Assembly (NCBI GenBank): GCA_025602905.1
Contig: JAHLKI010000028.1
Span: 310,001 to 374,000 of the forward strand
Reading direction: 5' to 3'
Origin: Phlyctochytrium arcticum
Lineage: Eukaryota > Chytridiomycota > Chytridiomycetes > Chytridiales > Chytridiaceae
Length of the DNA: 64,000 nucleotides
This document shows, piece by piece, positions 1,056 through 64,000 of the stretch. A program made the translations under genes and the position numbers. Position 1 is the stretch's first letter. Each line of letters opens with the position of its first letter. The notes beneath the pieces are model-generated. The model did no database searches. It saw only the letters and a list, made by a program, of their open reading frames with translations, and was not told the DNA's origin.

Positions 1056-4000
1056 CTAATAACGATACAGATCATTGGAGTTGGCAGCTTCCACTAATGC
1101 TGCAATCTCTCGTATAAGCATAGATCCCAGCTGCTCCATACGTTTCCGCTCTTCCGCATCAATAGACTTTCTCGAGTTGGCCCTTGATTGCGCCCAAAAC
1201 ACCCATGTCAAATATTTTTCCATCCACATTTTGAGTTCCTGCAACACGCGTAAATGATACACGCTGGGAACCCGAATCTGAAGCCAATCGTCAACCCAGA
1301 AGGCGGGCTTGTCCAGTTCAGTGGTGTCTCGCACTACAGTCTGCGGATCCGCGAAAAGGACCAGCGCGATTGGATCTACTCGGGTGGTACTTCGCATATA
1401 CAGGGCGCCATCTACTCGCTGCTTGTCCTGGAAGGCCAAAATTCGGGGGGGTAAGGGGGGAGGAGCCGCTCCGGTTGGTACATCGAGCGAGGCAGTGTCA
1501 TCATTATCGTCGGGGATAGTGTCATAGTCAAATACATCTGAGTTAGAGGCTGATCCTGGGGCGCAGCGACCATTGGACGGACCAGCCTGTAAGGCCTTGT
1601 CAGCACTAACAACTCCTTTCCAGCTGTTGACGCTGCTACCGGTCAGTCGCAACACACGCTCATACCGTGATCGGTATTCGTCTTTCGCAGTGACCTCCGC
1701 GATATTGGGGTACAATGCCCCGCCAAGAATAGCGCGCACCATCCCAGCGTTGTTCGCGTGGATATTCCTCTCGGCCCCGCCAAGCTGGGCGGTACTTCGT
1801 GGGCCATGAGCCCGCTGTCTTGATACAAAGCCAGCATCCTCCAAGCTGCGCACCAGCTGTTGTCGGGCACGCTCAATATTTGCCATACTGTTGTAATGGA
1901 GATAATTGGTTCGGGCAAAGTCTTTTGCTTCAGGAATGAAAGAGCGGGAGCCTAAGCCTCCTGCTTCTGCCACGCTTTTCCATGCTGAGAACGCGGCAAG
2001 GGTAGTCAAATGGTCACTCTGTGTACCCACTGCGAACTTGGCCAAAATATGAGCACGACCCTGTTCTTTTTCGTCCGGGTGGATTGCAAAAACCCCTCGC
2101 CCGATTTCCATTCCACCTGCTAATGTCAAAATAGGGTCTAAACAGCCTAGCAAAGCGGCTTCCAAAACCATCTTGCCAATCCACGGGTCTACAGGCATGT
2201 TGGCTAGGACGCGACCAATTGATGTCAGGTTCTCGTCTCTTGTAAGCGCTCCCAACTTTTGCAGTTCCTGCATGGCGGTTCTGACGTTTCCAGGTGAAGG
2301 TGGCTGTGGAGCAGCTGCGAATACATCCGCAACCCTCCTTGCCAACCGAAGTGCCTTAATCTTCAGAACGGTGGATTGGAGGTCAACTCTCAGCAATTCT
2401 GGTGGCATGCTGAACGGCAAGGACTCTTTCCGCCGGTGAGAGAGTAAAGAAAAGTATTGTCCCGGTTGGCATCGACCGGCACGACCAGCACGCTGCGTTT
2501 AGCGAATTGAGTATCCTATAGACGCGCGAGAACAACAAACATTTAAATACCTGACGTAAATTAGACGTAGCTGCCCAAACAGAGCTTAGAGAGGAGATGC
2601 GACGATCCGCATCGTATGAGTTGATTCGAAGTTTCGCGGCATCTACGACGTAGACAACGTCATTAATCGTTACACTTGTCTCGGCGATATTTGTGGAAAG
2701 AATGATTTTGCGAACGCCTTTGGGTGGAGTGTCAAAGATCAGCTGTTGTGCACTTGTGGGAATTGAGGAATGCAATGGATATATCCGATATTTAGCCTCG
2801 TTGCTGAATCCGATTCGATACGTTTTATCCTCTTTGAGGCGTTGCATCATGGTATCAATCTCCTGCCAACCGGGCAAAAAGCACAAGATTGCGCCCTCTG
2901 GTCGAGTACCACAAATGTGGGCGATTAGGGCCTCCAGGTAGTCGTACGGTACGGGATCCTCGCCCCTTGGTGGAATCATGCTGCCCATCTCATTTCTCGC
3001 CCATGATAGAGATTCTTTTGCTGGACGGAACGGAACCGGCAGAGCATCTCGTTTGTATAGCAAATTTTCTACATCCTCCAAAAAATGTTTTTCCACCGGG
3101 AACATTCGCCCGGGAACAGCTATTACGGGTGGTAACAAATTACTCTTGGGATCGCTCCCAAATCCGCGGAAATAATCCTGGAAGAGTTTTGTCTCTGCCG
3201 TTGCAGACATGAGAATCACGCGAAGATCCGGGCGTCTTTTCAACAAATGCCGCACAATAATTAGCAAAAGATCCGTGTTCAAGTCCCGCTCGTGAACTTC
3301 ATCCAGAATAACGTGCGTGACATTGGTCAGGGATGGGTTTTCCTGCAGCCGTTTCAACAAGATTCCAGACGTGCAAAAAATAAGATGGCCAGACTCTGGA
3401 TCAGATGTTGGGCGCTTGTCGTCAAATCGGACCTGGTAGCCAACGTTGCTTCGCCGGCCTATTACTTCACCTCGCTCGGAAGCAACACGTTGTGCAACCG
3501 ATATGGCAGCAATTCGTCGAGGTTGCGTGACTACAATATTGGCCGGCGCTGGTCGTGCGGGATCATTCTGAAGAAACTTTCGTTCCTGCGCGATATGTGA
3601 TAGAATAAACTGCGGAAGTTGAGTGGTTTTTCCCGCTCCAGTTTCTGCCGACAATATTGTGACGGGATTACTTTCGATAGCTGCCATAATCTCTTGATAC
3701 TTGGTGAAAATGGGCAGTTCGTTCTTCAGCAACTCCTGTGGGATCTCAATCTGGTGTGGTTCCACCTGACGGAGACGAGGACCGGATGCAAAACTTCCAC
3801 CGTCATTGCCAAAATCCATGAGCGGTTCGAACGATTCTGATTCCATTTCAGCTTCCTGAATCGCAAAAGCGTCCGCATCTTTGAGCTGTGACAGCATGTT
3901 GTCCAGCCGGGCCAAGTTGGACTCTGCCAAATCGATCTGGATGGGCTGCTCTAGCATATCGGCAATCCGCTTCTTGGGAGGTACTGAGTGGAGACGGAAA

Positions 4001-5424
4001 AGATCCACGTACTGCTGATTTACTATTGCCAGTAAATGTGTTGTCAGATTGCTCCAGCCTCGAGTTTGTGCTGCCTTCTTTCCTTTGGCTTGTCCCAAGA
4101 CGTTCAACATGGGTAAGCTCTGTCCTTCAAATGTGTGTGGTGGCAGATGATAATGACACTCCCAGTGTCCAGGGTCATGTTTTCTACCGCTAGCATGCCG
4201 AAAAGAAGGCTTTGGTACAGGTAGATTTTGTTGATTGCAGTAATATGTGACAAACTTCTTCTCTACATCGTCAATGCTGCGAGGTAAGGTGGCATTTGGA
4301 ATTGGAAGACGGTGCTGCATGGGAGGGGCGCGGTGCTCTTGTTGATAGCGTGGTCCACCTTGCCCGCGCGCAAGTGGGGGGACATATGCTCCCGGCCCAA
4401 GTGACTGTAATGATGGCTGCCATGAACCATCCCGTGGATCCCCCGCCTGCCAATTGTCCGGACGCGAGTATGTACCATTTTGCGCTTGCGCGTTTTGAGG
4501 TTGACGTGATTGGAATGCAGGGGCGGTCTCGCGAATGGTCAATTTGCCTCGCGGTGTTGCTGGTGTTGAGATTCTCAATTTTCCCATCAAAGCCGCGACA
4601 GGTGATTCTCCCCGCGGCCCTCCACTAACGCTAATAGATGCCGGAAGTTCCTCGTCATCATCCCAAGCGGAGCTAGATACAGGTACGGAATTTTTAAACG
4701 CAGATGGGTGTTGGGGAGCTTTGCTTGAAATGGCTTGAAGCGGCAGGCTATCCCACTCTTCAGGCACGGCTCGATTAATGTTAGTACGCGGCGCTTCCTG
4801 TTGCGCGCCTCCACTACCACCAGATCGGGCCGGCTTACCCCGGCGTCGGCGCTTTGGCTCAGCTGCGACTAAGAGTCCTTCACTTTCCAAGCGCTCGCTA
4901 ACAGTGTGATAGAGATTCTGCCGGGCTGTTTTCTTGTTTGTGCCGTCTGTTCGCACTGACAACGAGCGGCCCGGGGCGATGGGTATGTCCAGGCGAGCAG
5001 TAAAGTACTGCTGAGCTCCCCCACCTCGAACAGACTGTGGAACTCGGTGCTCTTCAAACTGTGGGTCCAATGGCATCTGAACTTTTTGAAAGTAGTTTCG
5101 AACGGTTTGAGTATCCTGCGAGATTTGCAACTCGCTCAGGTTACTCCCCAACTCTGATGGCTCAAGCGGCAGCCGGGGGGCAGGTTTGCTACTGCTTACA
5201 CGAGAGGAAGGGCGCGATTCCTGGTCTCTCCGAGAACTCTGGGGGCCTGATGGCTGTCGATTCATTATGATGTTGCGGTGTTGTTGAGACGCTGTTACCG
5301 GAACGGTTTTGGAATATAAATTCAAGCTGAGCGACGATGTTCGTAGTAACGAGTTATCCTTGCGAAAGACGGAGATTCCTTGTGGCCTAATGAAATGATT
5401 AAAGAGAGGAATGATATGTTTCAT
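1056..5424 (-). CDS. DExH-box RNA helicase with dsRBD-like N-terminus (DHX9/DHX30-type)
   Basis: Two exons (5424-2551 and 2492-1056) and a 58-nt intron give 1436 aa. The splice restores motif VI as QRAGRAGR. Other helicase motifs are visible: motif I GAGKTT at about residue 596, Ia TQPRR, II DEVH at about 708, III SAT, and V in STNIAETSVTI. After the core come the winged-helix, ratchet (HA2) and OB-fold regions typical of DEAH/RHA helicases. Two stretches before the core (about residues 105-185 and 385-470) look like dsRNA-binding folds, as in DHX9 and DHX30. Such enzymes unwind or remodel structured RNA using ATP. The first Met opens a basic, Ser/Leu-rich segment that could target mitochondria; a second Met at codon 54 (MNRQPSG) would give a form without it. 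Start choice is therefore uncertain; the family is firm. Confidence 0.88.
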
Positions 5425-47246: not shown

Positions 47247-48399
47247 GGTTCCTGTGCCGTGCAATATGCTCGTCTTCGTGATTTGGGTATATCTTTTCTT
47301 GAATATGTCACAAAAGATTCCAAAGAGACCAAAGATGGGTTCCCGGCACGGAATGGGTTTTTGAGAGAAGGAAAGAGTACAAGACACCCAATGGATCTTT
47401 GCGGTTCTGATGATGAACAAAAAGAGTCGGCAAACGGTAACGAGATTCGGGACAGTGTAGAGAGTCAGGTAGAGAGTAAAAGAATGCTATAGAAAATTCT
47501 TGGAGCGGAGCAAAGGCCGTCCAAATCAGTATCACGTGATTGATTTACGCGTCGGTGTCGGTCAAGGTTCAAAAAGAACTTCTCCTGGGCTTCGTGCTGC
47601 GCGACAAACCAACAGTGCTGAGGGTTTACTAGTATAGGTCTAGGTATAGGTACTTTGAGTTTGCTTTAGGTATACGTACTGAGAGTTTGCAGCAGAATCA
47701 GGAAGCGATATGTAGTGCATTGTGAAGGTTGCACAATTACATTTTATTTCTTTCCACCTCTTGTAACTTTTGATCTCTCGCTTGCGGGGCCTGGCAACAT
47801 GCTATGAAACTATCGTTGCACTTCTTTCCATGTTTGTCTTCTATCTTCAATAACTTTTGATCTCTCCAGTGCCCGCTGGTGTGCGTTGGCAACCGGTCAA
47901 TCAGGCCGCTATACTGTACGTATTGCTGGTGTTTTTCCATCTTTGATTGCTATAATATACTAGGGAACACGCGGTAGAGGGATGGGCTAAGTTGGAAACA
48001 TGCTCGGTGTGTGATGCGAACGAATTGTACTCAGATATCGCAATACTCGGAGGAAATGTGACATAAAAGAGATACTGACTTGATTCAATGTCAGTACTCA
48101 GGAAGCGGGGGAGACCCCAGTAGTATCTATATGGAGCCGGTTTACCCGCAATTGACCACCTTATCCACCCTCCCTCGAACCGCCCTCCATGTTACATCAT
48201 TGGTGCGCCACTCTCACGTAATCGTCGAGTCCGATGGAGAGAATGCTGTCAGATGCATCGAATTTGTATGTGCCTTCTATTGTGAACTCTATCGGTTGAC
48301 TTCTTGTTCATTCCCAGCCATGGGTCGCGCAAGCACATTTACTTGTGATGAGATCCGTATTCTTGATCTCTGGTGGGGACGTTTTCCTGACATTAGAGC
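47247..48399. other. Intergenic region with small tandem repeats
   Basis: A 26-28-bp near-tandem repeat lies at about 47636-47690 (units with GAGTTTGC) and a TAACTTTTGATCTCTC pair at about 47764 and 47849. A 109-codon frame (48080 on) runs up to the insertion site of element 1 and stays open on the other side; no family recognised. Confidence 0.4.
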
Positions 48400-48404
48400 T
48401 ATGT

Positions 48405-48640
48405 TGTAGCGTTTTCGGGTAAAAAGTGGTATGGACGGTAATGCACCTTCCCAGGGTGCGTGAGTCGGGTTGTGTATTGCTTTAGCGCAGAGCAAAGAGA
48501 AAGCGTAAAGAGTCTGAAAATGTACAGTGCAGGATGGGATATACAAAAAGAAAAACAAAACAACACGTGTGATGTGGCACGGCACTGCGCTGTTTGCGCA
48601 GTGGTGCGGACAATGCGCAGCGAACCACGAGCCCGCTGCA
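48405..48640 (-). repeat. 3' LTR of element 1
   Basis: 236 bp, TG..CA bounded on both strands (TGTAGCG at one end, TGCAGC on the minus strand). It matches the partner LTR exactly by eye. The left flank is TATGT. Confidence 0.95.
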
Positions 48641-49323
48641 CCCCCCTCAGACTCGATGCTGGAAAGAGGAGCGAGGCTTCAGATCAGGGTTCGTGTGTCA
48701 GCAGAAAGATTGAAGTATCAGGTCACCAGCACAACCTCACCGGGCAACTATACACCGAACACGCCAGACGTGTATAGAAGCCAGCGGTGCAAGTGAACAA
48801 ACCGAACAACGCCAGACGTTTGGTCACCTGAATTGTGTTGGATCACCTCCAAGTCAATTTCACTGTTGTCACAGGCATGAATAGCTGCTACTTGCAGCTT
48901 CCCCGAGACTCTCGTTGCAGATTGTGCAACAACCGTGTGCGCATGTTCGCACAGGTACGAAGGTAAGGATGTGTTTCCTTGCGTTGAAGGAAATTACGCG
49001 TAATGACGGAGATAAATGTTTCCCCGGCCTCTCATCACCTATGCATAGATGATGCATCAACTCAGCTCAGGCTGATCAGGCCTACCGGAGTTCTGACGTG
49101 CGAGACGCGTCGTCAGCAAGGAGCAACCTTGGATGTGGGTCTCAAAGTGTTGAGATGGTGCGCGCGCGTAGGTAGTATCAAGATATGGGATGGGAGGTCC
49201 CGAATAGTAATGAATGACGTGAAGTGTTGCAAGAGGACACTCGTTGCTTTGATAGCAGTCATGCGGTATTCTCTCATTGAGAATGTGATACTTTGAATAT
49301 GAAACACATCTTCCTTGACGTCA

Positions 49324-49944
49324 CTAGCGTTTGCGTTGTGAACGTTTCGATGGGGGCTCGGCTGTAGACGAAATGTCAGTTGCCGATGCTTCGTTTTGGG
49401 CTTTCTTTCGCTTTGAACTCTTGGGTGCTGAGGGGCGTGCTAGTTCCCATGCTTTCAGCGCGTCGGTTTGCTCAAGGTGTTCCCGCGGTTCCCAAGTTGA
49501 GTCCTCTGGCCCGAAGCCTTCCCATTGAACCAAGTATTTCCGCTTCTTGTGACGGATCCGCTCGTCCAGAATACGGTCGATGAGCCAAAGTTCCTCGCTG
49601 TTGACCAGCACAGGCTCCGGCGCATCCTTCGTGGCACGATGGGTAATAGAGCCAGGTTTGTGCCACGGCTTCAGAATGTCGACATGAAATGTCGGATGTA
49701 CCATACGCATTGGATGAGGTAGTTCCAGCGTGTAGGTATCAGGGTGCGGTCCGGTTCCTTTGACCTTGAATGGACCAAGCCAATCCTGGCGAAGTTTCTC
49801 CGGAAGCTTACCCAAAGCTGGAATGTGGATCCCTTTGCGTTTGAGTAAAACTGAATCGCCCTTCTCGAAGATGAGCGTCCGCCGACCCTTGTCATGGTTC
49901 CTTGCTTGCACATCTTGTGCATCGCGTAACCGTTGTTGTACCAC
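49324..49944 (-). pseudogene. Element 1 integrase tail and chromodomain
   Basis: A 206-codon frame with the GPY/F region (RQDWLGPFKVKGTGPHPDTY, then MRMVHPTFHVDILKPW) and a C-terminal chromodomain (IDRILDERIRHKKRKYLVQW, then EGFGPEDSTWEPREHLEQ), ending in a Lys/Arg tail. Chromodomains steer such integrases to marked chromatin. It is separated from the integrase core by a frameshift near 49950-49970. Confidence 0.9.
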
Positions 49945-49959
49945 CCGTTCGATCTCATG

Positions 49960-50690
49960 AGGGTATCAACAAACTTGGCTACTTGCCGATTTGTTGGCTT
50001 TGATATCTCCTGCAGACCTTCCCTGGTATGGTGTCCACCATTGACCTGTGGGAGGCGGCCTTTGTCGATCATGAACGGGGCATAGCCGGTATTTGATGGT
50101 GTTGAGTTGTGGTGAAACTCAACCAAGGGTAGGATATCAACCCAGTTCTTGCCATCGCCGTCTATGTAGGCCTTCAGCACGTTTTTGACAGACTTGATTT
50201 TGCGTTCGCATTTGCCGTCTGTCTGCTGATGTCGAGCGGTCGCCACCTCTAACTTGATACCGAGAGCAGCGGTAAAAGATTGCCAAAATTCGGCTAAGAT
50301 GCGGCTGTCGCGATCGCTGACAATGACCTTGGGAGCACCTTCGTTCTTGAAGAAGTGCTGGGTGAAGAGATACGCAAGCTCTTGACTCGAAACCTCCATG
50401 TTGCAAGGGATGAGGTACACACGTCCTGACAGATAGTCGACTATGACCAGGGCGGCATCGTAGTAGTCGCCGTTATGGCTAGGTTTCCCCCCCCACGATT
50501 CCGTCCTAGGTAGTGAGACTAGATCCATGCCGATGGTGTGCCAGCGCTTATCAGGCACTGGGAGCGAGCGTAATAGTCCGACACCTCGTGCGGGACTTCG
50601 GAAGCGTTGACAAGTTGCACATGTGCGAACATAAGCTGCAACGTCGCGTTCCATAGTCGGCCAATGGTATTCTTGCAGCAGACGACCATA
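49960..50690 (-). pseudogene. Element 1 integrase core
   Basis: Contains the zinc-binding C..C part (YVRTCATCQRF), the first catalytic Asp in WHTIGMDLVSLPR, the second in VIVSDRDSRILAEFW and the Glu in TDGKCERKIKSVKN. The HHCC histidines lie at the left deletion edge and are largely gone. The frame opens directly from protease/RT-leader sequence because of the internal deletion. Confidence 0.9.
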
Positions 50691-51853
50691 TGTCGAATCC
50701 ACCCTTTGGCAAGCAACGTTGTAATTTGCCGTTGAAGTTCTTCCAGTTCCTTCGGGCCCATTGCACGCAAGGGCACCGACAGAGGTCTATCTACGCCGTC
50801 GATTTCAATTTTGAAGTCGTCTTCGCCCCGAGAAGGTGGTAACGTGCGTAGCTCTGTGAAAACTGTCTTCTTGAACTTTCGTAAGATTGGCAGTAACGGA
50901 TTGTCTTCCGGAATGGACGCTAGCGGATCTTCGTCCGGAGCTTTTTGTCCATTGGCCGCGCTGTCGGTACTACTTGTACTTGCAGCCGCGGTAACTCGCG
51001 CGGAGGCCGGTGCCTCGCGGATATGTCCGTTGCCATCTATCCACTGGAGTACGTTGACATTGACTGCAAAAACTGATGTGAACTCCTTCTTTCGCATCGC
51101 TCGGAGAAATTTTTCAGCCTTGAGGTGGGTCTTGACGTCCTTGACCGAGGCGAGAGGTGATTGAAGGCGAGGCGAGTCGAGATTGCAGTCAAACGCACGT
51201 AAGTGGGCAGCATTGCAGGATGGTTGTTGCTCACGTTTTCGTGAAACCGGTCTTGCTTCGCATAGGCGACGAACGCCTTCAAACATGAAAGACATGCGAG
51301 GACGTTCATCAACCTTGTCAATCTGGAGTCCTTCAAGGCCGAGAATGAAAGGTAGTCCCACAATGGCATCTACGCGTAATGGCGCAACAATGAACGGTAG
51401 CTCACCGAAGGAACATTTGTTGTGATCGCAGTAGAGGTCCAGGGCTCCTAGCATCATTCGATTCGACTTGAAGGTTTCTCCGTCGTCTCCCCATTCTACT
51501 TCGATAGTAGAGCTGGGTTGATAGGTTGGGAACTTATGTTGCCTGACCCACTTGTCGTTGATCATCAGGGTATCGCACCCGGTGTCGACAAGAATACGGG
51601 CCATCTTGCCATTCAACTTCGCATGAACGACAAAGGCATTTTGAGCAATTACCGGTTCAGGTCCACAAGCAACACGGCGTGGAGCATAACGATCTTCATC
51701 CAAGGAACCTCCAATCGGTGCAACCCGAACAACGCCAGACGGCTGCATCGGTTTTGATGATTCCTTGACCTCCGATCGTGTATCTCCTCGTTGCGTAGCT
51801 TGTGATTGTGGACTCGAGGACTGAACTTCTTCGGTAAATGTAAAAGTGGACAC
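50690..51853 (-). pseudogene. Element 1 protease and RT leader, truncated
   Basis: Starts MSTFTFTEEVQSS. The aspartic protease has KMARILVDTGCDTLMINDKW. It continues through the linker to ELEELQRQITTLLAKGWIRH, where RT should begin, and then shifts into out-of-frame integrase sequence. Compared with element 2, about 1.66 kb covering all RT and RNase H motifs (including the YLDD box) is missing at this point. Confidence 0.92.
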
Positions 51854-51968
51854 AGTATTGATGGATACGGTTGTATTTAATTAGAAAAGTTATTAAAAAC
51901 AAAAGGATTATCTAATCTGACCGAACCATCCTGCGGCAAACGACCTGTGTCGTTATTGCTTGCCGGAT

Positions 51969-53332
51969 CTAGTTTTTTGGATCGCGGCGTTTGGCATTGG
52001 GACATCTGGCAGACCAATGGTCGCCACTACCGCAGCAGTAGCACCAGATGCGGTCTGACTCGGCCTGCTGGTTGTTTTTGCGAGGTCCGGGAGATGAACT
52101 TGACCCGGATCCGCTGGCTCCAGCGTTGGCTCCACGCCCTTGGTAAGCATAGGGCTTACCATGGTTGTGGGTTTTGCCATTTGCCGCAGAGACGTTGGCT
52201 TTGGGACTCTTTCCACCACCGTTCTTCGCCGGGCCATTATTGGCAGCCGGCACGGAGGCGGGACCCTTGCCTTTTCCGGTTCCACCCGCGACAGGGACAT
52301 AGGCCCCGTCATTGTCGCATCCCCACGCTTGGAGGGTTTGGGTGGTAGCCGTTTGGATCTGGGTGAGGTTGGCGTCGGGATGCATTCCGAAAACAGCCTG
52401 CATCAGGCGACTCCAAAATTCCCCTCCCCGTTCTAGTCCGTCACGAAAGTAGCGTCGCATCTGATCTTCGTCAATGGGGCTACGGGCGGTGCTGGTGGTT
52501 CTCAATTCGCCAGTGATCCTGTTGAAGGCGGAGATATAGGCCGAGTAATTTCGGCACGTGAGCTGACGGAGCCTGGCCAAAATGGCGTCCCGCGGGTTTC
52601 TTCAAACTCCTCCCGGTTTGCGGGTCTCTCGGCCAGGGTCATGGAGGAAAACCAGTCCTTGGCTGTTCCCTCAAGGGCGCGTTCCATGTAATCCACGAAC
52701 GATCGCCCCGCGCGCTGGTCCTCGTTGGCGGGAGAATGGTCAAGGAAAGCATAATGCTTATCCAAGAAGTCACGGATCTTCTTGTGTGACGCAACGTCAC
52801 TACCCTCTCCCGAGAACATGGCATTTTCAGCTTTGCGCTGGAGTGACTTGTTTTGCATTGAATCAAACAAGTTTCCTTGTTGGCCATTGCCATCGCGAGC
52901 GGCCACGTCAGCTTTGAGCGAAGCAATCTCCTCCGTCAAGGATGTGAGAATTGCCGTAAGCTGTTGCTTGTCCGCGACGGCTCCTCCAAGAGCGGACGCC
53001 GCGGGGGTGGCATTACCCGAGAGGGAAACACCAGTCATCCCCGTAGGTCCCTCAGAGGGCCTAACCACGTCTCTCGGGGGCTCTTCGTCGACCATCATGG
53101 GTACGACGCCTCCCGCATGGTTGTCTGTGCTGGTCGAACCAGTCTCCTGAGCATCTCTTTCTCCAGCAATGGAGGATGTCTCAGAATGCTGGCCGATCTC
53201 TCCAGCCTCAGTTTGGTCTTCACCCAGGAGAGGAGGTCCGCTCTCTATAGTACTAGAGACGGGGCCCTCTTCACTCGGCTTGCCTTTGCTTTTGGTCTTG
53301 CGCGCCACAGCCTGCTTTTGTCCAGAACCCAT
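51969..53332 (-). pseudogene. Element 1 gag, frame broken
   Basis: Two overlapping frames. The first starts MGSGQKQAVARKTKSKG and has a capsid-type helical region (FLDKHYAFLDHSPANEDQR; SFVDYMERALEGTAKDWFSS). The second continues the homology (RNYSAYISAFNRITGELR; DQMRRYFRDGLERGGEFWS) and ends with a CCHC zinc knuckle, CYCCGSGDHWSARC. The shift lies near 52590, where about ten residues present in element 2 are lacking, so a small deletion with frameshift is likely. Confidence 0.85.
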
Positions 53333-53455
53333 GTTGAACGGAACAAAGAGTAGAAAGAAGTAAAAGAAGCGAAAGAGGTAGAAGCGAAAGGTCGAGTCGA
53401 AAGGGTAAACGGACGGTTTGAGGCTAGTAGGATTGCTGATGGGGTGGTGCTACCA

Positions 53456-53691
53456 TGTAGCGTTTTCGGGTAAAAAGTGGTATGGACGGTAATGCACCTT
53501 CCCAGGGTGCGTGAGTCGGGTTGTGTATTGCTTTAGCGCAGAGCAAAGAGAAAGCGTAAAGAGTCTGAAAATGTACAGTGCAGGATGGGATATACAAAAA
53601 GAAAAACAAAACAACACGTGTGATGTGGCACGGCACTGCGCTGTTTGCGCAGTGGTGCGGACAATGCGCAGCGAACCACGAGCCCGCTGCA
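53456..53691 (-). repeat. 5' LTR of element 1
   Basis: Matches the 3' LTR exactly. It directly precedes the primer-binding site on the minus strand. The right flank is TATGT. Confidence 0.95.
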
Positions 53692-54484: not shown

Positions 54485-57400
54485 TGTGTCATTGGTCCCT
54501 GAGAGCGGTAGCAATCATTACTGCGCGAGCTGGCATGCGCCACACTCGTGACAGGTTTTCTTCCATCATAAAGTACTCTGATAGCATTAGACATAACTTT
54601 AAGTGTTTTTCGACCATTACGCTACCCGAACTCTCGCAACCTGGGAAGTTGCATATAGCGTCCATTTTACTTTTCTTTGAGCCCCTTTCTTTCATCAGAC
54701 CGATCCCCCTGACCCCTTTGCATGGTAGCACCACCTTCGTGGTTTGATTGAAAACAAGTTCGGCTTTCCAATTTTGTTTTTGAAGTTTTTGAACTTTACC
54801 CTTCTCTCACCCACTCGTTCTTTCTTTCCAGTATCATGACCTCCAAGCCTTCGAAGACTCGCAAGGGGCAGAAGGGTGCCGCCGACGGTGAAGCGTCGAA
54901 GCGTGACAAGAAGGCGGACGAGGCCGTGGGGAAGCAAGAGGAACAACCGTTCCGTGAGAGGGAGGAAGAGACCATGGAGTCAGAGGACGACATGGACCGT
55001 ACCGCGGGGCGAAGTGAGATGGAGGAAGGCGAGACCGTCGATGACCTTATGGAAGTCGAGGGTGGAGCTGACCCCTCTCCCCCTGCTGGGCAACCCCTCA
55101 CTGAGCAACGTCGTGGGTCGACTGGCGCAGCGCTTGGCGGAAGCCTTGCGGAGTTGAAGTTGACCGCGACTGATGCCAGGGACAAGGGTAAGGGCCCAAT
55201 CCCCGAGACCGAGGCAGAGCTCTGTGCTCTCCGTGACGAAGTAGTCCGGTTGAAGGGACAGCTCCGGGAGCAGGAAGCGCAGGTACCCGGAATGCCGGTG
55301 AACCCTGGATCCACTCCCCAAGTAGGCAGCTCCTTCTTTGAAGTGAGCGAGCTGAAGTCCTTGCAGAAGTCGGCGAGCGAGGCTCGTTTTGCGGGAATTC
55401 GGGAGGATTGCACGGCCGAAAGGATACGTGACTTCTTGGTACGTCATCACGACTACCTGGACCACCCGTCTTCAGGAACCGCATACGACAACCGGATGCG
55501 TACTGGCTATGTGCAGTACATGGAGCGTCATTTGACGGGAGCCGCGAGATCGTGGTTGGACTCACTTGGTCCATCTCGCCCCCGTTGCAGAACGGACTTT
55601 GAAGCGATGTTGCGGAGTCGCTTCATGGAGCGTAACCCGAGACCTCGGGTTATTGCCCAATTGAGAGGGTTGCAATGCAGCAACTAACCGTCTGACCTCC
55701 CAACTGGCTGTAGGAGGAGAGCCACTGCCCGATTCCGAGGTTCGCGCCCTTTTCAGGGATGGGTTGAACCGAGGAGGGCATGTCTGGGCGTCTATGGGCA
55801 AAGACATTTTGCGTCATGCCCATTCAGTGAGGTCGGCGAATGCAGGTATCGCTCCAGCCACAGTGGCGGACCTGCAGCGCATTGGATCGGAGTTGTTGGA
55901 GATTTTCTCCCTCGACAACAACGGCAAGTATGTCTATGCCGCCGGCGCACCCACTGAGGGTTCCGCGCCCACCGATCCCGCCAACCCTGGACCTTCCGGA
56001 TCGTCTTCCAAGAGGGGGAAGGCGAGTGTATCCGCGGTTCAATCTCGCGATTCTCGCAAGGCGGCACCTTATCACAAAGGTGGTAAGGGCAGTGGTCAGA
56101 ACGGAGGGAGTTCTGGATCCGGCAACCGCAAAGAGGCGGTTCGTCTGGGAACAGACCGCAAGGGGGGGGCCCCGGCCTTCTTTTGTTTTGTCTGTGGGAG
56201 CACTGCGCACGTTGCCCGCATGTGCCCCAACAAAGCCACTGGTCCTTCGGGAAACTAGAGGGGATGGGCGAAGACGGCACAGGCCGTCCAACCTTAGATG
56301 TTAGTGTTTCTTGTACTTTGACAAATACATTATCATCTGTGAACTCTGTGTCTTTGCATCCGTTGGTATCGTCCGAAGGTTCATCCGTGAAAGGAGAAGC
56401 TACGCATACCGTAGGCAGTGAGCGACCGTCTGGCGTGGTTCGGGTTGCTCCTGCTGAGGTCGCGAAGGGTTCTTCCGCCACAAATGAAACTCCGAGGCGT
56501 TCACCACCAGGGATGATTGATCCTGCCATCTCACCATATGCCTTTGTGATCCATGGGAAGCTGAACGGCAAGATGGCCCGAATGCTCATTGATACGGGCT
56601 GTGACACGATGATGGTCAGTGACAAATGGGTTCGGAAACATGGTTTTCCAACCCATTCTCCTCCCACGACCATTGAGGTTGAGTGGGGTGACGACGGGGA
56701 AACATTCATGTCCACGCGTATGATGAAGGGTGACCTGGAGATCTACACGAACGCGGGCCAAAAGATCGGCTTCCAGGAAGCTCCGTTCATTGCGGCACCG
56801 CTCCGAGTTGATGTCATCTTGGGACTCCCCTTCATCCTGGACCTTGAATCCCTCCACATCGACAAGGTCGATGATTACCCCCGTCTGTCCTTCACTAAGG
56901 AGGGGACTCGCCACTATTGTGAAGCGCGACCTGTGTCACGCAAGTGGTCGGGAAAGTTGAGCTGGAACGCCAGTTCTCTGCGTTACTTCGCTTGCAAACC
57001 GAGCTCCTCACGCCTGAAGTCGCCGTCGGAGCTTCCTGGAGTGAAGCAGATTCCAGAGCTCCTTCGGGCAGACAGGTTTTTACGCGGTGTGTGGAAAAAG
57101 GAGTTTGTCTCGGTGTTTGCTGTACAAGTTGACGTTGAGCGCTGGATTGAGGGGGGTGGCCGTGTGCGTGTCGCTCCTGCCTCCGCGCGGGTGAGTGCAG
57201 CCCGATCGCAAGCCCGGGAAACTGGAACTCAGGAGTTGAAGGTCCCTGACAGTGTCCCCGACCCGCTGGCTTCGATCCCTGCAGATCATCCGTTGCTGGC
57301 GATCTTACGCCCATATGCAAAGACTGTCTTTGCGGAGTTGCAGACTCTACCACCTTCTCGAGGAGAAGATGATTTCAAGATTGAAATTGAAGGCAAGGAG

Positions 57401-60400
57401 GCGCCTGTGTCAGTACCTTTGCGGCCAATGGGTCCTGATGAGCTCGAGGAGCTCCAACAGCAAATTACCAAACTCTTGGCCAAGGGATGGATCCGCCATT
57501 CTTCAAGTCCGTGGGGCGCCGCTGTGCTATTTGCGAAAAAGAAGGACGGAACTCTTCGTTGCTGCATTGATTACCGTGGGTTGAATCGGCAGACAAAGAA
57601 GGACCGTACCCCTTTGCCGCATTTAGCCGAGTTGCGTCACCGTACGGTTGGCAAGAAGTGGTTTTCGCTGTTGGACATCAAGGACGCTTACCATTGTGTG
57701 CGCACCAGGGAAGGTGACATCCCAAAGACTGCATTCAAAACCCGCTTTGGACATTTCGAGTACGCCGTGATGCCGTTTGGGCTAACGAACGCACCTGCGA
57801 CTTTCCAACGGATTATGAACAAAGTCTTTGGAAGCATGTACGATGATTTCATTATCACGTACTTGGACGACATTCTCGTCTTCTCCGACACGCTGGAAGA
57901 GCATCAGCGCCATGTCGAGAGTGTGCTGAAGGCATTGGAGGCCAGCGCACTGTATGTCAAACCGTCCAAATGCACTTGGGCTGTGCAGGAAGTTGAATTC
58001 TGTGGCCATATGATGGGTCAGTCTGGCGTCCGCATCTCCGAGAGCAAGATTGCAGCCGTCCAGAGCTTTGCTGTTCCCCGGAACTTCAAAGACATTCAAT
58101 CCTTCCTGGGTTTGACCAACTACCTTTCATCGTATGTCGATAGGTATGCTGAGATCGCGCATCCGTTGTCTGAACTGCAGTCTGGCAATAAGCCCTGGCA
58201 GTGGACTGATGCGGAAATCAAAGCGTTTGAGCCGCTGAAGGAGAAGATTTCTACGGCTCCTATGTTGACGCCGTACAATCCAGACAAGGAAGTCTACGTG
58301 TTCACCGACGCGTCTGGCTTCGCCATAGGAGGATGGCTTGCTCAACCAGCCAATGCAGATGACACTATGCCTTCACCTTTGCCAACTACGGTTGCAGGGT
58401 TTAAGGATCTGCCCCGGCTGCGTCCCATCTTGTACTTCTCGAGGAAGATGCAAGATGCAGAGACTCGGTACCCGGTCCATGAGCAGGAGTTGCTTGCGCT
58501 TGTCAAGATGCTGAAGGCGAACCGACAGTTCCTCATGGGACGCCATTTTCGCGCTTTCGTCGACCACAAATCTCTGATCTACTTGCAGGAACAGCAGCAT
58601 TTGAGTCGTCGTCAGGCAAATTGGGTCGAATTTCTCCAACAGTTTGACTTTGACATCGAGTACCTTCCTGGTGAATGGAACACCGTTGCCGATGTCCTTA
58701 GCCGTAACCCGTATTACGCGCCGCGCTGTGCGGATTGTGCGCAACGAGTTATGGTTAACGCTGTGGCGGTTCAGGCAGCACACCTTTCCGAACATCGTGC
58801 GACGATCAAGGTTACGGTTAATGCCGCCCGCGCGAAGAAGCGCGCAAGGAAGCATATGGCACAGGCGGTCGGCCAGCTGGAAGATGTTCCTTCCGACCCC
58901 CTGCAGTGGGCCAAATTGCTTCGATCGGACGACTTTGCTATCCAAATGCGGCAGAGTTTGGAGGCAAAGTCGAAAGCGCCGGAGACTATGTCAGCCCATG
59001 AGCGACGCTTTTCCGAAGAGGACCTCGGTATGCAGACCAACGACGGCAAGCCGGCTTCGTTGCTCCGCTACGAGGGTCGCCGCTATGTCCCCGACGCGTT
59101 ACGCACTGCGCTGTTAACGCGTTATCACGATTCCCTGCTGATGGGCGGACACACCGGAAAGCATTCGACTTATGCTCGCTTGCTCCAGGAGTATTGCTGG
59201 CCCGGTATGGAACGCGACGTTTCGGACTATGTTACCACATGCCCGCAATGTCAACGTTTCCGAACCACATCACGCGGTGTGGGGTTGCTCCGCTCATTAC
59301 CTGTGCCTGACAAGCGTTGGCATACGATCGGTATGGACTTTGTGTCTTTGCCTCGTACGGAATCGTGGGGGGGGGGGAAGGATAGCCATAATGGCGATTA
59401 TTACGATGCCGCACTCGTCATAGTGGATTACCTCTCCACTCGTGTGTATCTGATTCCATGTAACATGGAGATGGGGAGCCAAGAGATTGCATATCTCTTC
59501 ACTTCGCACTTCTTCAAGAATGAAGGTGCACCGGAAGTGATTGTCAACGACAGAGACAGCCGCTTTTTATCCGAGTTTTGGGAGGCCTTTACGGTCGGCT
59601 TGGGCATTAAGCGGGAAGTCGCGACGGCTCGTCATCAACAGACTGATGGCAAGTGCGAGCGCAAGATCAAGCCTGTGAAAAGCATTTTGAGGGCTTTCAT
59701 AGACCTTGACGGTAAGAATTGGGTGGACATCTTGCCGATGCTTGAGTTCCATCACAATTTGACTCCGTCAAGCATGGGCTTCGCTCCGTTCATGATAGAC
59801 AAGGGGCGTCTACCGCTGGTATTCGGGGAATTTACCACGCGGAAAGGTCTTCAACAGATCGCAACACCTACTGCGCAACAAGTTGCAAAGTTCGTTGATG
59901 CTCTGAGAGACACTGAACGGGTCGTGCAGCAGCGCCTACGTGATGCACAAGATGTGCAGGCGCGAAACCATGACCGCGGGCGTCGGACTCTGAAATTTGA
60001 CAAGGGCGATCTCGTCTTGCTCAAACGTAAGGGGATCCACATCCCGGCCTTGGGAAAGCTGCCCGAGAAGCTTCGTCAGGATTGGATTGGTCCATTCCGT
60101 GTGGAGGACTTTGGACCTCATCCTGATACGTACCGGTTGAAGTTGCCACATACTATGCGTATGGTTCATCCGACGTTTCATGTCAATATCTTGAAGACAT
60201 GGGAGCCCCCGAACTCCGTAGCCTACAGGGCTTCGTTGGAAGCGCCTGATCCTGTCCTTGTGAATGGAGAGGAACTTTGGCTAGTTGACCGCATCCTTGA
60301 CGAGAAAGTCCGTCACAGGAAGCGGATGTACTTGGTACAATGGGAAGGGTTCGGACCTGAGGACGCGACTTGGGAGCCGCGAAAACACGGAAGCACTGGG

Positions 60401-60445
60401 CGCATGGGAAGTAGCAAATCCCCCAGTGGCAGACCGTGTGACAGT
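54485..60445 (+). mobile_element. Ty3/gypsy LTR retrotransposon, element 2 (5' part, interrupted)
   Basis: The plus-strand element has a primer-binding site TGGTAGCACCACC at 54723-54735, gag from 54836 and a complete pol. The 5' LTR must end at 54722 (..CTTTGCA). Its start is not proven; TGTGTCATT at 54485 would give 238 bp, close to the other LTRs here. Near its 3' end, in the chromodomain, the element is cut by element 3, so its remaining tail and 3' LTR should lie beyond the window. Protein sequence is closely related to element 1. Confidence 0.85.
54836..56258 (+). pseudogene. Element 2 gag, frame broken
   Basis: The first frame (54836-55687) starts MTSKPSKTRKGQKG and has the helical capsid region (FLVRHHDYLDHPSSGTAYDN; YVQYMERHLTGAARSWLDSL). 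It stops at LRGLQCSN. Homology resumes in another frame at about 55690 (NRLTSQLAVGG; EVRALFRDGLNRGG), lacking some residues found in element 1 at the same place. The second frame ends in a CCHC knuckle, CFVCGSTAHVARMC. So a small deletion with frameshift has inactivated it, at a different spot from the break in element 1. Confidence 0.85.
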
Positions 60446-60574
60446 TATAACAGGATTAGCAGGGACGATGTTCCATTGGTGAGGTATAACTTTGTTCAGT
60501 GTAAAGTACAGTTGACTAGTACTATTCTGTGGGGGTTGTCGGTTAAGCTACGGGGGAGGGGAAAACTACCGTAG
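56183..60574 (+). CDS. Element 2 pol polyprotein (protease, RT, RNase H, integrase, chromodomain)
   Basis: One open frame of 1,463 codons, overlapping the end of gag by 76 bp, consistent with frameshift expression. Protease LIDTGCDTMMV at about residue 137; RT with WFSLLDIKDAYH, MPFGLTNAPATFQ and YLDD at about 560; RNase H with FTDASGFAIGGWL; integrase with zinc-binding CPQCQRF, catalytic Asp in HTIGMDFVSLP (about 1052), second Asp in NDRDSRFLSEFW (about 1123) and Glu in GKCERKIKP (about 1159); chromodomain VDRILDEKVRHRKRMYLVQW. The last 43 codons are LTR sequence of element 3, so the true C-terminus is lost. A G9 run at 59368-59376 could be error prone. Confidence 0.95.
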   Translation: MFCLWEHCARCPHVPQQSHWSFGKLEGMGEDGTGRPTLDVSVSCTLTNTLSSVNSVSLHPLVSSEGSSVKGEATHTVGSERPSGVVRVAPAEVAKGSSATNETPRRSPPGMIDPAISPYAFVIHGKLNGKMARMLIDTGCDTMMVSDKWVRKHGFPTHSPPTTIEVEWGDDGETFMSTRMMKGDLEIYTNAGQKIGFQEAPFIAAPLRVDVILGLPFILDLESLHIDKVDDYPRLSFTKEGTRHYCEARPVSRKWSGKLSWNASSLRYFACKPSSSRLKSPSELPGVKQIPELLRADRFLRGVWKKEFVSVFAVQVDVERWIEGGGRVRVAPASARVSAARSQARETGTQELKVPDSVPDPLASIPADHPLLAILRPYAKTVFAELQTLPPSRGEDDFKIEIEGKEAPVSVPLRPMGPDELEELQQQITKLLAKGWIRHSSSPWGAAVLFAKKKDGTLRCCIDYRGLNRQTKKDRTPLPHLAELRHRTVGKKWFSLLDIKDAYHCVRTREGDIPKTAFKTRFGHFEYAVMPFGLTNAPATFQRIMNKVFGSMYDDFIITYLDDILVFSDTLEEHQRHVESVLKALEASALYVKPSKCTWAVQEVEFCGHMMGQSGVRISESKIAAVQSFAVPRNFKDIQSFLGLTNYLSSYVDRYAEIAHPLSELQSGNKPWQWTDAEIKAFEPLKEKISTAPMLTPYNPDKEVYVFTDASGFAIGGWLAQPANADDTMPSPLPTTVAGFKDLPRLRPILYFSRKMQDAETRYPVHEQELLALVKMLKANRQFLMGRHFRAFVDHKSLIYLQEQQHLSRRQANWVEFLQQFDFDIEYLPGEWNTVADVLSRNPYYAPRCADCAQRVMVNAVAVQAAHLSEHRATIKVTVNAARAKKRARKHMAQAVGQLEDVPSDPLQWAKLLRSDDFAIQMRQSLEAKSKAPETMSAHERRFSEEDLGMQTNDGKPASLLRYEGRRYVPDALRTALLTRYHDSLLMGGHTGKHSTYARLLQEYCWPGMERDVSDYVTTCPQCQRFRTTSRGVGLLRSLPVPDKRWHTIGMDFVSLPRTESWGGGKDSHNGDYYDAALVIVDYLSTRVYLIPCNMEMGSQEIAYLFTSHFFKNEGAPEVIVNDRDSRFLSEFWEAFTVGLGIKREVATARHQQTDGKCERKIKPVKSILRAFIDLDGKNWVDILPMLEFHHNLTPSSMGFAPFMIDKGRLPLVFGEFTTRKGLQQIATPTAQQVAKFVDALRDTERVVQQRLRDAQDVQARNHDRGRRTLKFDKGDLVLLKRKGIHIPALGKLPEKLRQDWIGPFRVEDFGPHPDTYRLKLPHTMRMVHPTFHVNILKTWEPPNSVAYRASLEAPDPVLVNGEELWLVDRILDEKVRHRKRMYLVQWEGFGPEDATWEPRKHGSTGRMGSSKSPSGRPCDSYNRISRDDVPLVRYNFVQCKVQLTSTILWGLSVKLRGRGKLP

Positions 60575-60684
60575 GCTATATACTTGTAAAATGAAGGAAA
60601 GAAAAGACACGGCAGACACTGCGCAGCACGCGTCGCGCGACGCGTCTTGAAACTAACAAGGGAATGCGCAGTCAGCTTGTTACA
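60446..60684 (-). repeat. 3' LTR of element 3
   Basis: On the minus strand it starts TGTAACAAGC and ends CTGTTATA. The left neighbour is the element 2 chromodomain sequence, which reads on into the LTR for 43 codons. It contains GCGTCGCGCGACGC, a short palindrome. Confidence 0.92.
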
Positions 60685-60706
60685 CTCCCCTACTTAGGAG
60701 CGAGCG

Positions 60707-62860
60707 TCAGCGTATGTTGTTCTTGGTCTTGTAGTCGCGAAGGATCTGAATGGCTGCAGGTCCTTTGAAGTTCTGTGTTGGCTCGTACGTGTTCTCTTCG
60801 GATGGGTACCCTTTCCATTTGACTAGGTACTTGAGTTGGTTTCTGAACTTGCGATGGGCTTCGATGCGTTCAACTTCATAGTAAGCTTCGTCGTTGAAAA
60901 GTTGTGGTTCTGGTCGGGGGTCAACACGTCGATCGGGGAAGTTCTCCTGGGGGTCGATGTAGGGCTTCAGTTTACTGACGTGAAAGGTCGAATGCGCGCG
61001 GATGGTACTTGGGAGATCGAGGGTGTAGTTGTCTTTGTCGTCCTTGGCAGTGATCTTGAATGGGCCGAGCCAAAGGGGTTGCAATTTGGCTACGGGTCTA
61101 TCACTGGTTGTTTCTTGGACGAGGCCTTGACTAGACAACATGACGCGGGTACCAATGTCGAGGGTAGAAGGGTTGCGATGCAGTTTGTTGTATTGCACGG
61201 CTTGTCTTTGTTGGGCTGCGGCGATCTGGTCCTGGGCAACCTTGATGGTGGCGTTGATGTGGTTGAGGTAATCGGCAGCGTCAGGGTTGGCGGGTTGAAA
61301 GGAGCTTGGTGGTGTCTTTGGGGTACGCGGGTGTTGTCCTGTGTCGAGGTAGAATGGGGTCATACCAGTCGTGGCGGAGACTGCGTCGTTGTGAGCGAAC
61401 TCGGCGAAATGCAGCAAGTCTTCCCAGTTGGCCATATGGTGGTCGACAAATGCGCGTAAATAGGTCTTGAGTTCTTTGATCGTGATTTCCGCGAGACCGT
61501 TTGTCTGTTGGTGTCGAGCTGTGGACATGTGTGCTGCGCAATCCAGCATCTTGAGTAATTCGGACCAAAATTTGCTGATGAACTTGGAATCGCGGTCTGA
61601 AACGATGATCTGTGGCAATCCGTGGAGCTTGAAAATGTTGGCCATAAACAATTCCGCGGTATCTTTGGCAGTTGCTGTCTTCCGTGTTGGTAGGAAATGG
61701 GCACGCTTGGACAAGCGATCCACCACCACTAAAATTGCGTTGCGTCCGGAAGAAGTCGTGGGGAGGTCTGGGATGAAGTCCATCGAGATCTGACTCCATC
61801 TGGTCGTTGGGGTTGGCAAAGGGTGTAAAAGTCCAATGGGTAGGTGTGTCGATGATTTGTTGCGTTGGCAGGCGTCACAAGACTTGATGTACTGTCGGAT
61901 GTGCTTATACATCTTGGGCCAATAGTAGAATCTTGCTAGCGCTTCGAATGTTCTGTGTATACCAAAGTGTCCAGCGATGTGTGTGTCATGGTGGGTCTGG
62001 AGCAAGTTGGTTCGTTGTGAGTGTGGTACGTATATCCGATCATGGAAAAATACGAGTCCGTCATTGTGTTTGAGGTGGGCAAGTCGGGGACGTTCGTCTT
62101 TCGCAACTTGGTCAATGGGTTTCTTCAAAAGTTTGATCAAATTTTGAAGTTCAGTGTCTTTCAATGTCCCTTGGGTCAATGTGTTGAGGGGGGTTTCCGT
62201 GGTGAAGATTGTTGTGTTAATGTCGTAATTGTTGAGTGGGGTTCGACATTTGGTACATTTGGGCGCAAGATCTGCTCTCCTAGAGAGTACATCTGCAACG
62301 GTGTTCAGTTTGCCTGGTCCATATCCGATGCGGAAATCATATGATTGAAACTCCATGACCCATCTAACTTGGCGTCGTGTCAGATGGTGTTGGTCTTGCA
62401 ACCATTTCAAAGATTCGTGGTCGGATACTACGTTGAATTCCCTTCCTTCCAGATAATGTCTCCAGACTCTGAGAGCATCGTGAATGGCGAGGAGTTCTTG
62501 TTCGCGAGTATCGTAGCCTAGTTCCGCAGAGGTCATTTTGCGTGAGTGATATGCAACGGGTCGAATGGATTTGCCGTCATCCTGGCCGAGCCATGCGCCG
62601 ATAGCAAAGCCAGAGGCATCGGGGTAGACAACAGTGGGTAGTTGAGGGTCAAATGTGCGTAGGACGGGTGCGGATGTGGCTAAGTCCTTCAGGGCAATAA
62701 AGGTCTTTTCGCATTCCGGTGTCCAGATCCAAGGTTGTTCTTTTCGAAGGAGGTCAGTGAGAGGGAATTCAACGTAGTATCCGACCACGAATCTTTGAAA
62801 TGGTTGCAAGACCAACACCATCTGACACGACGCCAAGTTAGATGGGTCATGGAGTTTCAA
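60707..62860 (-). pseudogene. Element 3 pol remnant (RNase H, integrase, chromodomain)
   Basis: 717 codons. RNase H begins with VVYPDASGFAIGAWLG and has REQELLAIHDAL and NVVSDHESLKWL. Integrase follows with H..H/CDACQRNKSS, ISMDFIPDLP, VSDRDSKFISKFW and GLAEITIKELKTYL, i.e. all three catalytic acidic residues. The end is a chromodomain (EVERIEAHRKFRNQLKYLVK). The first 30 codons are inverted-arm sequence, not gypsy protein, because the frame runs out of the hairpin spacer into the other arm. Protease and RT are absent. Confidence 0.9.
61632..62443 (-). repeat. Inverted repeat arm A (812 bp) of element 3
   Basis: Covers the end of RNase H through the integrase catalytic region. Its reverse complement equals arm B at 62762-63573; shadow frames on the opposite strand are also the same in both arms, showing near or full identity at DNA level. 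The spacer between arms is 318 bp (62444-62761) of unique RNase H sequence. Confidence 0.95.
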
Positions 62861-63573
62861 TCATATGATTTCCGCATCGGATATGGACCAGGCAAACTGA
62901 ACACCGTTGCAGATGTACTCTCTAGGAGAGCAGATCTTGCGCCCAAATGTACCAAATGTCGAACCCCACTCAACAATTACGACATTAACACAACAATCTT
63001 CACCACGGAAACCCCCCTCAACACATTGACCCAAGGGACATTGAAAGACACTGAACTTCAAAATTTGATCAAACTTTTGAAGAAACCCATTGACCAAGTT
63101 GCGAAAGACGAACGTCCCCGACTTGCCCACCTCAAACACAATGACGGACTCGTATTTTTCCATGATCGGATATACGTACCACACTCACAACGAACCAACT
63201 TGCTCCAGACCCACCATGACACACACATCGCTGGACACTTTGGTATACACAGAACATTCGAAGCGCTAGCAAGATTCTACTATTGGCCCAAGATGTATAA
63301 GCACATCCGACAGTACATCAAGTCTTGTGACGCCTGCCAACGCAACAAATCATCGACACACCTACCCATTGGACTTTTACACCCTTTGCCAACCCCAACG
63401 ACCAGATGGAGTCAGATCTCGATGGACTTCATCCCAGACCTCCCCACGACTTCTTCCGGACGCAACGCAATTTTAGTGGTGGTGGATCGCTTGTCCAAGC
63501 GTGCCCATTTCCTACCAACACGGAAGACAGCAACTGCCAAAGATACCGCGGAATTGTTTATGGCCAACATTTT
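62762..63573 (+). repeat. Inverted repeat arm B (812 bp) of element 3
   Basis: The plus strand reads the same RNase H-integrase peptide as arm A (for example REFNVVSDHESLKWLQDQ and SAMDF-like ISMDFIPDLPTT) for about 270 residues without change. It ends at CCAACATTTT, where the sequence turns into minus-strand gag DNA. Confidence 0.95.
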
Positions 63574-63794
63574 TTGCATTTGGCGGTAGGAGTTTTGAAG
63601 GTCAGTATGTTGTTGGGTCAACTCAATGAGTCTCGCCATCGCTTGCTCTGCCGTCAGTTCGGTGGGTTCAGTGGGTTCAGTGGGTTCAGTGGGTTCAGTG
63701 GGTTCAGTGGGTTCGGTGGGTTCAGTGGGTTCAGTGGATTCAGTGGGTCGGTGTTGGTACTATTAGGCAAGGAATCGAATGGGTGGTGCTACCA
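63574..63794 (-). pseudogene. Element 3 gag start, truncated
   Basis: On the minus strand after the primer-binding site, the frame reads repeated Thr-Glu-Pro and then ELTAEQAMARLIELTQQHTD and LQNSYRQMQK, a coiled-coil gag N-terminus. After about 20 more bases it is cut by arm B. No ATG precedes the repeats; the first in-frame Met is in EQAMARL. Confidence 0.7.
63655..63750. repeat. 9-bp minisatellite GGGTTCAGT
   Basis: About nine tandem copies of GGGTTCAGT with two variant units. On the minus strand it encodes Thr-Glu-Pro repeats near the start of gag. Confidence 0.9.
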
Positions 63795-64000
63795 TATAAC
63801 AGGATTAGCAGGGACGATGTTCCATTGGTGAGGTATAACTTTGTTCAGTGTAAAGTACAGTTGACTAGTACTATTCTGTGGGGGTTGTCGGTTAAGCTAC
63901 GGGGGAGGGGAAAACTACCGTAGGCTATATACTTGTAAAATGAAGGAAAGAAAAGACACGGCAGACACTGCGCAGCACGCGTCGCGCGACGCGTCTTGAA
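63795..64000 (-). repeat. 5' LTR of element 3 (cut by window edge)
   Basis: Starts TATAACAGGATTAGC, identical by eye to the left LTR over the 206 bp visible. The remaining 33 bp and the right target duplication lie outside the window. Confidence 0.93.

What the first reader, a model, noticed from the sequence alone, without database searches (positions are those of the whole stretch)
61632..63573. LTR retrotransposon carrying an 812-bp inverted repeat of its own pol, a natural hairpin-RNA locus
Arms 61632-62443 and 62762-63573 are exact reverse complements as far as I can read (the same 270-residue peptide on opposite strands, the same shadow frames), with a 318-bp spacer. Both sit between matching LTRs with PBS and PPT in place, so one transcript from the 5' LTR would fold into an 812-bp dsRNA stem against RNase H-integrase sequence. 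In maize, Mu killer, an inverted copy of a transposon, silences its family through such a hairpin. Here the hairpin would be packaged inside a mobile LTR element. It could arise by strand switching during reverse transcription. The silencing role is inference.
Basis: partly seen in the sequence, partly recalled or inferred. Interest (0 to 1): 0.85.

Follow-up and report, generated by a model that had tools for sequence, protein, structure and literature searches.

The report
Retrotransposon copy folded back on itself
One copy of a young LTR retrotransposon in a chytrid fungus carries a perfect 812-base mirror copy of part of its own pol gene, most likely an error of reverse transcription; its RNA would fold into a long double-stranded hairpin in a host that has RNA-interference genes, but nothing yet shows that it silences anything.

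Summary
In detail: arms 61632-62443 and 62762-63573 are 812/812 complementary, 318 bp apart. They lie in a 3,588-bp Ty3-type chromodomain LTR retrotransposon on the MINUS strand (60446-64033, ending 33 bp past the window) with identical 239-bp LTRs and a 5-bp target duplication. The host is the chytrid Phlyctochytrium arcticum. Of 15 family copies traced at both ends, 10 are full length, 3 have simple internal deletions and 2 are fold-backs: the window copy and an independent one on contig C6 with 163-bp arms. Both fold-backs have one topology and leave the inverted stretch within about 12 nt of the same integrase site. Short homology lies at or beside each of the 7 junctions seen. Best reading: minus-strand cDNA copied itself, then jumped back to RNA. 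The genome holds Piwi-domain genes at 5 places, RdRP at 3 and tandem RNase III (Dicer-like) at 2 or more; the predicted RNA pairs all 812 positions. A silencing role is plausible and untested. No second copy with these junctions was found, so mobility after formation is not shown.

The parts
60446..64000 (-). whole fold-back element; continues to 64033 (L009 9440), 3,588 bp
60441..60445 (.). left copy of the 5-bp target duplication ACAGT; right copy at 64034-64038, outside the window
   Evidence: printed true for this copy
60446..60684 (-). 3' LTR, 239 bp
   Evidence: identical to the 5' LTR, 239/239
60685..60691 (-). PPT-like AGGGGAG next to the 3' LTR
   Evidence: read by eye
60707..62860 (-). 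open frame with RNase H, H2C2, rve, SH3_Tf2-1 and chromodomain; its colinear part reaches back to 62761
61632..62443 (-). arm in normal orientation (end of RNase H to first part of integrase core)
62444..62761 (-). spacer, colinear RNase H sequence
62762..62765 (.). turn junction, 4 bp shared by both sources
62762..63573 (+). inverted arm, a copy of 61632-62443
63561..63573 (.). exit junction: 13-nt stretch where gag and integrase agree at 10 positions; no exact overlap at the switch itself
63574..63776 (-). leader and start of gag, with TEP-coding 9-bp repeats
63777..63794 (-). PBS-like stretch beginning TGG next to the 5' LTR; tRNA partner not found
63795..64000 (-). 5' LTR (to 64033), with a TATATA/TATAAA-type site at element position 103

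Best explanation
A non-autonomous fold-back copy of a young Ty3-type chromodomain retrotransposon of Phlyctochytrium arcticum. Most likely the minus-strand cDNA grew from the 3' end through integrase and RNase H, turned round at a 4-nt match, copied itself back for 812 nt, left at an integrase site, annealed imperfectly to gag RNA and finished to the 5' end. The product kept LTRs, PBS and PPT and was integrated with a normal 5-bp target duplication. Shown: anatomy, a second independent case, junction sequences, target duplications. Inferred: the order of the strand switches and that they came before integration. If transcribed from its own LTR the RNA would be an 812-bp hairpin and a possible Dicer substrate; that siRNAs are made and act on the family is not shown (I put that part at about one in three).
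For: Arms 812/812. 14 of 14 copies compared have 5-bp target duplications (12 printed true; L010 and L012 after a one-base shift of the boundary). LTRs of the window copy identical, 239/239. Second fold-back on C6: L012 positions 2-1693, then 4155 down to 3993 inverted, then 2894-5347; window copy 2-519, 4161 down to 3350 inverted, 3028-5347. In both the inverted piece is a copy of sequence that lies 3' of the turn point and is still there, as self-copying minus cDNA requires. Exact overlaps at the fold-back junctions 4, 3 and 6 bp at three of four (chance for inverted junctions of at least that length 1.4%, 4.7%, 0.12%); the fourth has 10 of 13 matches beside it. Five of 15 copies are rearranged, all between the LTRs.
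Against: Order of events is not observed; a plus-strand version or later chromosomal template switching gives the same product. The exact switch point of the window exit has no overlap in the copies seen. The C79 deletion has only a 2-bp overlap. In HTLV-1c, where inversions with microhomology are also seen, the authors lean towards end joining (PMC13427564, passages). A second family of this genome showed no fold-back, so the process is not general. The window copy ends 560 bp from a contig end and no reads were available.
Confidence: 0.75

Rival explanations
1. Rearrangement of an already integrated copy in the chromosome, by microhomology-mediated replication or repair with template switching.
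For: Short homology at the junctions fits such repair too; target duplication and LTR identity cannot date the inner change.
Against: Five of five rearranged copies keep both LTRs and have all traced breakpoints inside the element; two unlinked loci show the same topology and nearly the same exit site.
Confidence: 0.13
2. End joining of separate cDNA fragments before integration, without self-copying.
For: Microhomology is compatible; the HTLV-1c authors favour microhomology-mediated end joining for their deletions (PMC13427564, passages).
Against: In both fold-backs the inverted piece comes from 3' of the turn point and is duplicated, not moved; random fragments need not obey this. Two cases only.
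Confidence: 0.1
3. Assembly artefact (chimeric or fold-back reads).
For: The window copy lies close to the end of contig C28 (374,593 bp); family copies are nearly identical; no reads were available.
Against: Target duplication on both sides; breakpoints with short homology; a second fold-back inside the 1.28-Mb contig C6, more than 400 kb from either end.
Confidence: 0.04
4. On function: an inert dead copy; the hairpin is never transcribed or does not lead to silencing.
For: One copy only; family young and recently active; no expression or small-RNA data.
Against: Own LTR with a TATA-like site; Piwi, RdRP and RNase III genes present; the arms match 12 copies over their full length at 99.75% or better.
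Confidence: 0.6

Closest known systems
Mu killer of maize (PMC3440606, abstract seen)
   Same: A partial inverted duplication of a transposon gene that could give a long hairpin RNA against its own family.
   Different: Mu killer comes from a DNA transposon and is proposed to be read from a flanking gene; silencing is shown. Here the repeat sits inside an LTR element with its own LTR, and silencing is untested.
Defective proviruses with inversions (HTLV-1c, PMC13427564, passages seen)
   Same: Internal rearrangement between LTRs; microhomology of 4-10 bp at 58 of 185 deletion junctions; 1.9% of proviruses with an inversion.
   Different: A retrovirus, mostly deletions; passages seen do not describe inverted duplications with a retained second arm, and the authors favour end joining.
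Nested antisense EVD insertions in Arabidopsis (PMC11624286, passages seen)
   Same: Hairpin from opposed copies of an LTR retrotransposon discussed as a possible trigger of silencing; the siRNA source was not tested there.
   Different: Formed by one element inserting into another, with LTR arms; here a single element with pol arms and no inner LTR or target duplication.
Long hairpin RNA loci in maize pollen, Tpd1 (PMC11390486, passages seen)
   Same: Long hairpin RNAs as sources of siRNAs, some against LTR retrotransposons.
   Different: Demonstrated siRNAs and biological effect; not a fold-back LTR element in the passages seen.

Membership tests
Ty3-type chromodomain LTR retrotransposon | pol order RNase H - integrase - chromodomain | tested here: met
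   PF17917, PF17919, PF17921, PF00665, PF24626, PF00385 in order, above their cut-offs
Ty3-type chromodomain LTR retrotransposon | LTRs and short target duplication | tested here: met
Ty3-type chromodomain LTR retrotransposon | PBS complementary to a tRNA | tested here: inconclusive
   TGG-starting stretch beside the LTR; two exact tRNA patterns found nothing, the first of them too strict
Template-switch product of reverse transcription | change confined between PBS and PPT | tested here: met
   both fold-backs and three deletions
Template-switch product of reverse transcription | short homology at the switches | tested here: met
   exact 4, 3, 6, 7, 5 and 2 bp at six junctions; the window exit has none at the switch and 10 of 13 matches beside it
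Template-switch product of reverse transcription | formed before integration | not testable with these tools
   needs other isolates or a second copy with the same junctions
Hairpin-RNA silencing locus (Mu killer-like) | long near-perfect inverted repeat matching an active family | tested here: met
Hairpin-RNA silencing locus (Mu killer-like) | host RNAi genes | tested here: met
   (domains only; Dicer helicase and PAZ not tested)
Hairpin-RNA silencing locus (Mu killer-like) | hairpin transcript and small RNAs from it | not testable with these tools
   no expression data held
Hairpin-RNA silencing locus (Mu killer-like) | silencing of the family | not testable with these tools
   no expression data; the family looks recently active

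The most novel reading that the evidence does not exclude
Self-copying of minus-strand cDNA repeatedly turns copies of this active LTR family into promoter-bearing hairpin loci (2 of 15 traced copies), so that transposition itself breeds RNAi triggers against the family: a built-in brake that grows with activity, with a preferred exit site in integrase that makes such copies recur.
Probability: 0.15. Interest if true: 0.75.

Novelty: new variant of a known kind. Interest (0 to 1): 0.5.

Why it matters
How silencing first recognises a new retrotransposon is an open question. Inverted-repeat copies made by reverse transcription, carrying their own LTR promoter, would be a direct answer that needs no special insertion site. 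This genome offers two independent natural cases and RNAi genes, so small-RNA sequencing could test it. If the hairpin is inert, the copies still document recurrent fold-back products of an LTR retrotransposon.

Tried and rejected
Nested opposite insertion of a second element: rejected, no LTR or target duplication at the arm boundaries. The plus-strand neighbour (frame 56087-60574) as owner of the LTRs: rejected, the PPT-like and PBS-like stretches and the frame of the minus-strand element fit the LTRs. Second family as control (nested element of C79, 4,001-bp query): 53 matches, only 40 of 81 candidates scored, no opposite-strand pair closer than about 7 kb, so no fold-back seen. Integrase H2C2 survey: among 114 listed matches, opposite-strand pairs closer than 5 kb only on C28, namely the hairpin and the boundary to the neighbouring element of another family; fold-backs without H2C2 in the arm, such as C6, are missed by this test. 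A plus-strand start as cause of the common exit: no polypurine tract seen there by eye. Two tRNA patterns for the PBS: no match; the first demanded one acceptor pair too many. Search for rRNA to name the organism: not completed. Paper searches: no paper held all of 'LTR retrotransposon', 'inverted repeat', 'hairpin RNA', 'template switching'; none held 5 of 6 terms on deletion derivatives. The library lacks most subscription journals, so earlier reports may exist.

Full report
OBSERVATION. The inverted repeat is as described: arms 61632-62443 and 62762-63573, 812 nt, 100% complementary, 318 nt apart (rechecked). The 6 other inverted pairs of 60 nt or more that were found in the window are 71-82% complementary.

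THE ELEMENT. It lies on the minus strand. Its LTRs are 60446-60684 (3') and 63795-64033 (5', 33 bp past the window), 239/239 identical. It is flanked by ACAGT at 60441-60445 and 64034-64038. AGGGGAG precedes the 3' LTR and a TGG-starting, PBS-like stretch follows the 5' LTR; its tRNA was not found. The minus-strand frame 60707-62860 carries RNase H, H2C2, rve, SH3_Tf2-1 and chromodomain. Its best protein relative listed is 55% identical over 95% of the query (120 of 1,085 hits listed, 7,994 candidates scored). Compared with a full-length copy the window copy lacks L012 positions of about 520-3027: the rest of gag, protease and nearly all of RT (the domain names for the missing part are recalled from element order; the missing part was not scanned).

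THE HOST. The window is C28:310001-374000 of a 31.48-Mb, 91-contig genome. An Argonaute frame of this genome is 100% identical over its whole length to a Phlyctochytrium arcticum protein, and a second P. arcticum Piwi protein sits on a contig of 1,759,703 bp, the length of C2. NCBI places the species in Chytridiomycota.

THE FAMILY. Searches with the arm, with gag-RT and with the 3' part (counts there are lower bounds) give 15 copies traced at both ends, plus two cut by contig ends (C81, C90), small fragments and diverged relatives. Fourteen were cut out and 13 compared with the 14th, L012. Ten, L012 included, are full length (5,326-5,364 bp as cut; the nine others 99.4-99.8% identical to L012; C40 has a 21-bp gap). 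The fifteenth, on C79, was traced from matches of its two halves around a nested element. Five copies are rearranged. C3:1417k: deletion between L012 positions 487 and 2450. C4:812k: deletion between 3570 and 5000. C79: deletion in gag-RT, with a later element of about 7 kb in integrase. Fold-back 1, the window copy: 2-519, then 4161 down to 3350 inverted, then 3028-5347. Fold-back 2, C6 (L011, 4,290 bp): 2-1693, then 4155 down to 3993 inverted (163 bp; an exact direct copy is present downstream), then 2894-5347. Target duplications of 5 bp can be read on 14 of 14 copies: the script printed 12 as true; the other two (L010, L012) had been cut one base too far out and match after that shift.

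JUNCTIONS. Exact overlaps: window turn 4 bp, C6 turn 3 bp, C6 exit 6 bp, C3 deletion 7 bp, C4 deletion 5 bp (read; the script reported a longer chance match away from the junction), C79 deletion 2 bp. The window exit has none at the switch in the copies seen; beside it gag and integrase agree at 10 of 13 positions, and the base at the switch would be a G-T mismatch. Random inverted junctions share at least 3, 4 and 6 bp in 4.7%, 1.4% and 0.12% of 200,000 draws. The two exits lie within about 12 nt in integrase (L012 4149-4161); by a rough estimate two exits overlap so by chance in about 0.8% of cases. Both acceptor sites share a GGCC-containing stretch with the integrase site. The window spacer differs from every copy compared by at least 1 base of 318; against L012 it is at element position 1293, 20-odd nt from the turn.

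MECHANISM. In both fold-backs the inverted piece is a copy of sequence lying 3' of the turn point and still present there. That is what self-copying minus-strand cDNA must give, since only finished cDNA can be its template. The cDNA then returns to RNA upstream and completes the 5' end with PBS and LTR. A plus-strand version, chromosomal template switching and cDNA end joining are not excluded; confinement of the five rearrangements between the LTRs speaks for events before integration.

RNA ROLE. The predicted fold of 2,000 nt around the window hairpin forms 812 of 812 arm pairs (about -1,755 kcal/mol, against -496 for a 2,000-nt stretch of L012); 1,600 nt of the C6 copy form 163 of 163. The genome has Piwi-domain matches at 5 places (C2, C16, C7, C9, C1), RdRP at 3 (C27, C14, C23) and RNase III at 4: tandem domains on C16 and C20, two pieces on C4, one with stops on C7. 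So a hairpin could be diced; nothing here shows that it is. No locus other than C28 and, with its own breakpoints, C6 had the arm in both orientations. LTR pairs differ at 0-4 of 239 positions in the 14 copies, so the family is young, and there is no sign that the hairpin has ended its activity. The C6 copy's LTRs differ at 2 positions, the window copy's at none.

CONTROLS. No fold-back in a second family among 53 matches (40 of 81 candidates scored). Among 114 listed H2C2 matches, opposite-strand pairs within 5 kb only on C28.

LITERATURE. Mu killer (PMC3440606, abstract). HTLV-1c: inversions in 1.9% of proviruses, microhomology of 4-10 bp at 58 of 185 deletion junctions, authors lean to end joining (PMC13427564, passages). 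EVD hairpins from nested insertions, not tested as siRNA source (PMC11624286, passages). Long hairpin RNAs in maize pollen (PMC11390486, passages). In the listings I recognised, from titles and abstract starts, no report of an LTR retrotransposon copy with an inverted duplication born in reverse transcription; most listed papers were not opened.

VERDICT. A real, well-formed and uncommon structure. By origin a variant of known defective proviral rearrangements; as a hairpin locus untested but well posed.

Noticed in passing
L011 (C6:845500-855499), element at L011 2210-6499: Second, independent fold-back copy of the same family, 163-bp arms, exit within about 12 nt of that of the window copy; the reason for the shared exit site is unexplained.
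   Followed up: partly
window 60437-60445 and L009 9441-9492 (window 64034 on): The element was inserted into a short inverted repeat (about 26 bp arms around TCTTA) just behind the chromodomain end of the plus-strand neighbour element; one search shows the right half matching itself inverted over 49 nt at 94%.
   Followed up: partly
G000 C73:2800-6736, C27:166789-170725, C17:482113-486049, C2:1666858-1670794: Four copies of another LTR family share the same deletion of about 100 bp (query 2124-2226), as if one deletion derivative had multiplied.
   Followed up: no
window 48398-53691: Another LTR element: 243-bp direct repeats 5,051 bp apart, 99% identical; its inside is related, 71-79% and inverted, to the element at 56-60 kb.
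   Followed up: no
window 63657-63755: 9-bp tandem repeats coding TEP units at the start of gag; alignments to other copies differ by indels in this stretch.
   Followed up: no
C79:10929-17881 and C90:6165: A copy of this family is split by an element of about 7 kb at the place equivalent to window 61875-61879; C90 shows the same boundary.
   Followed up: no
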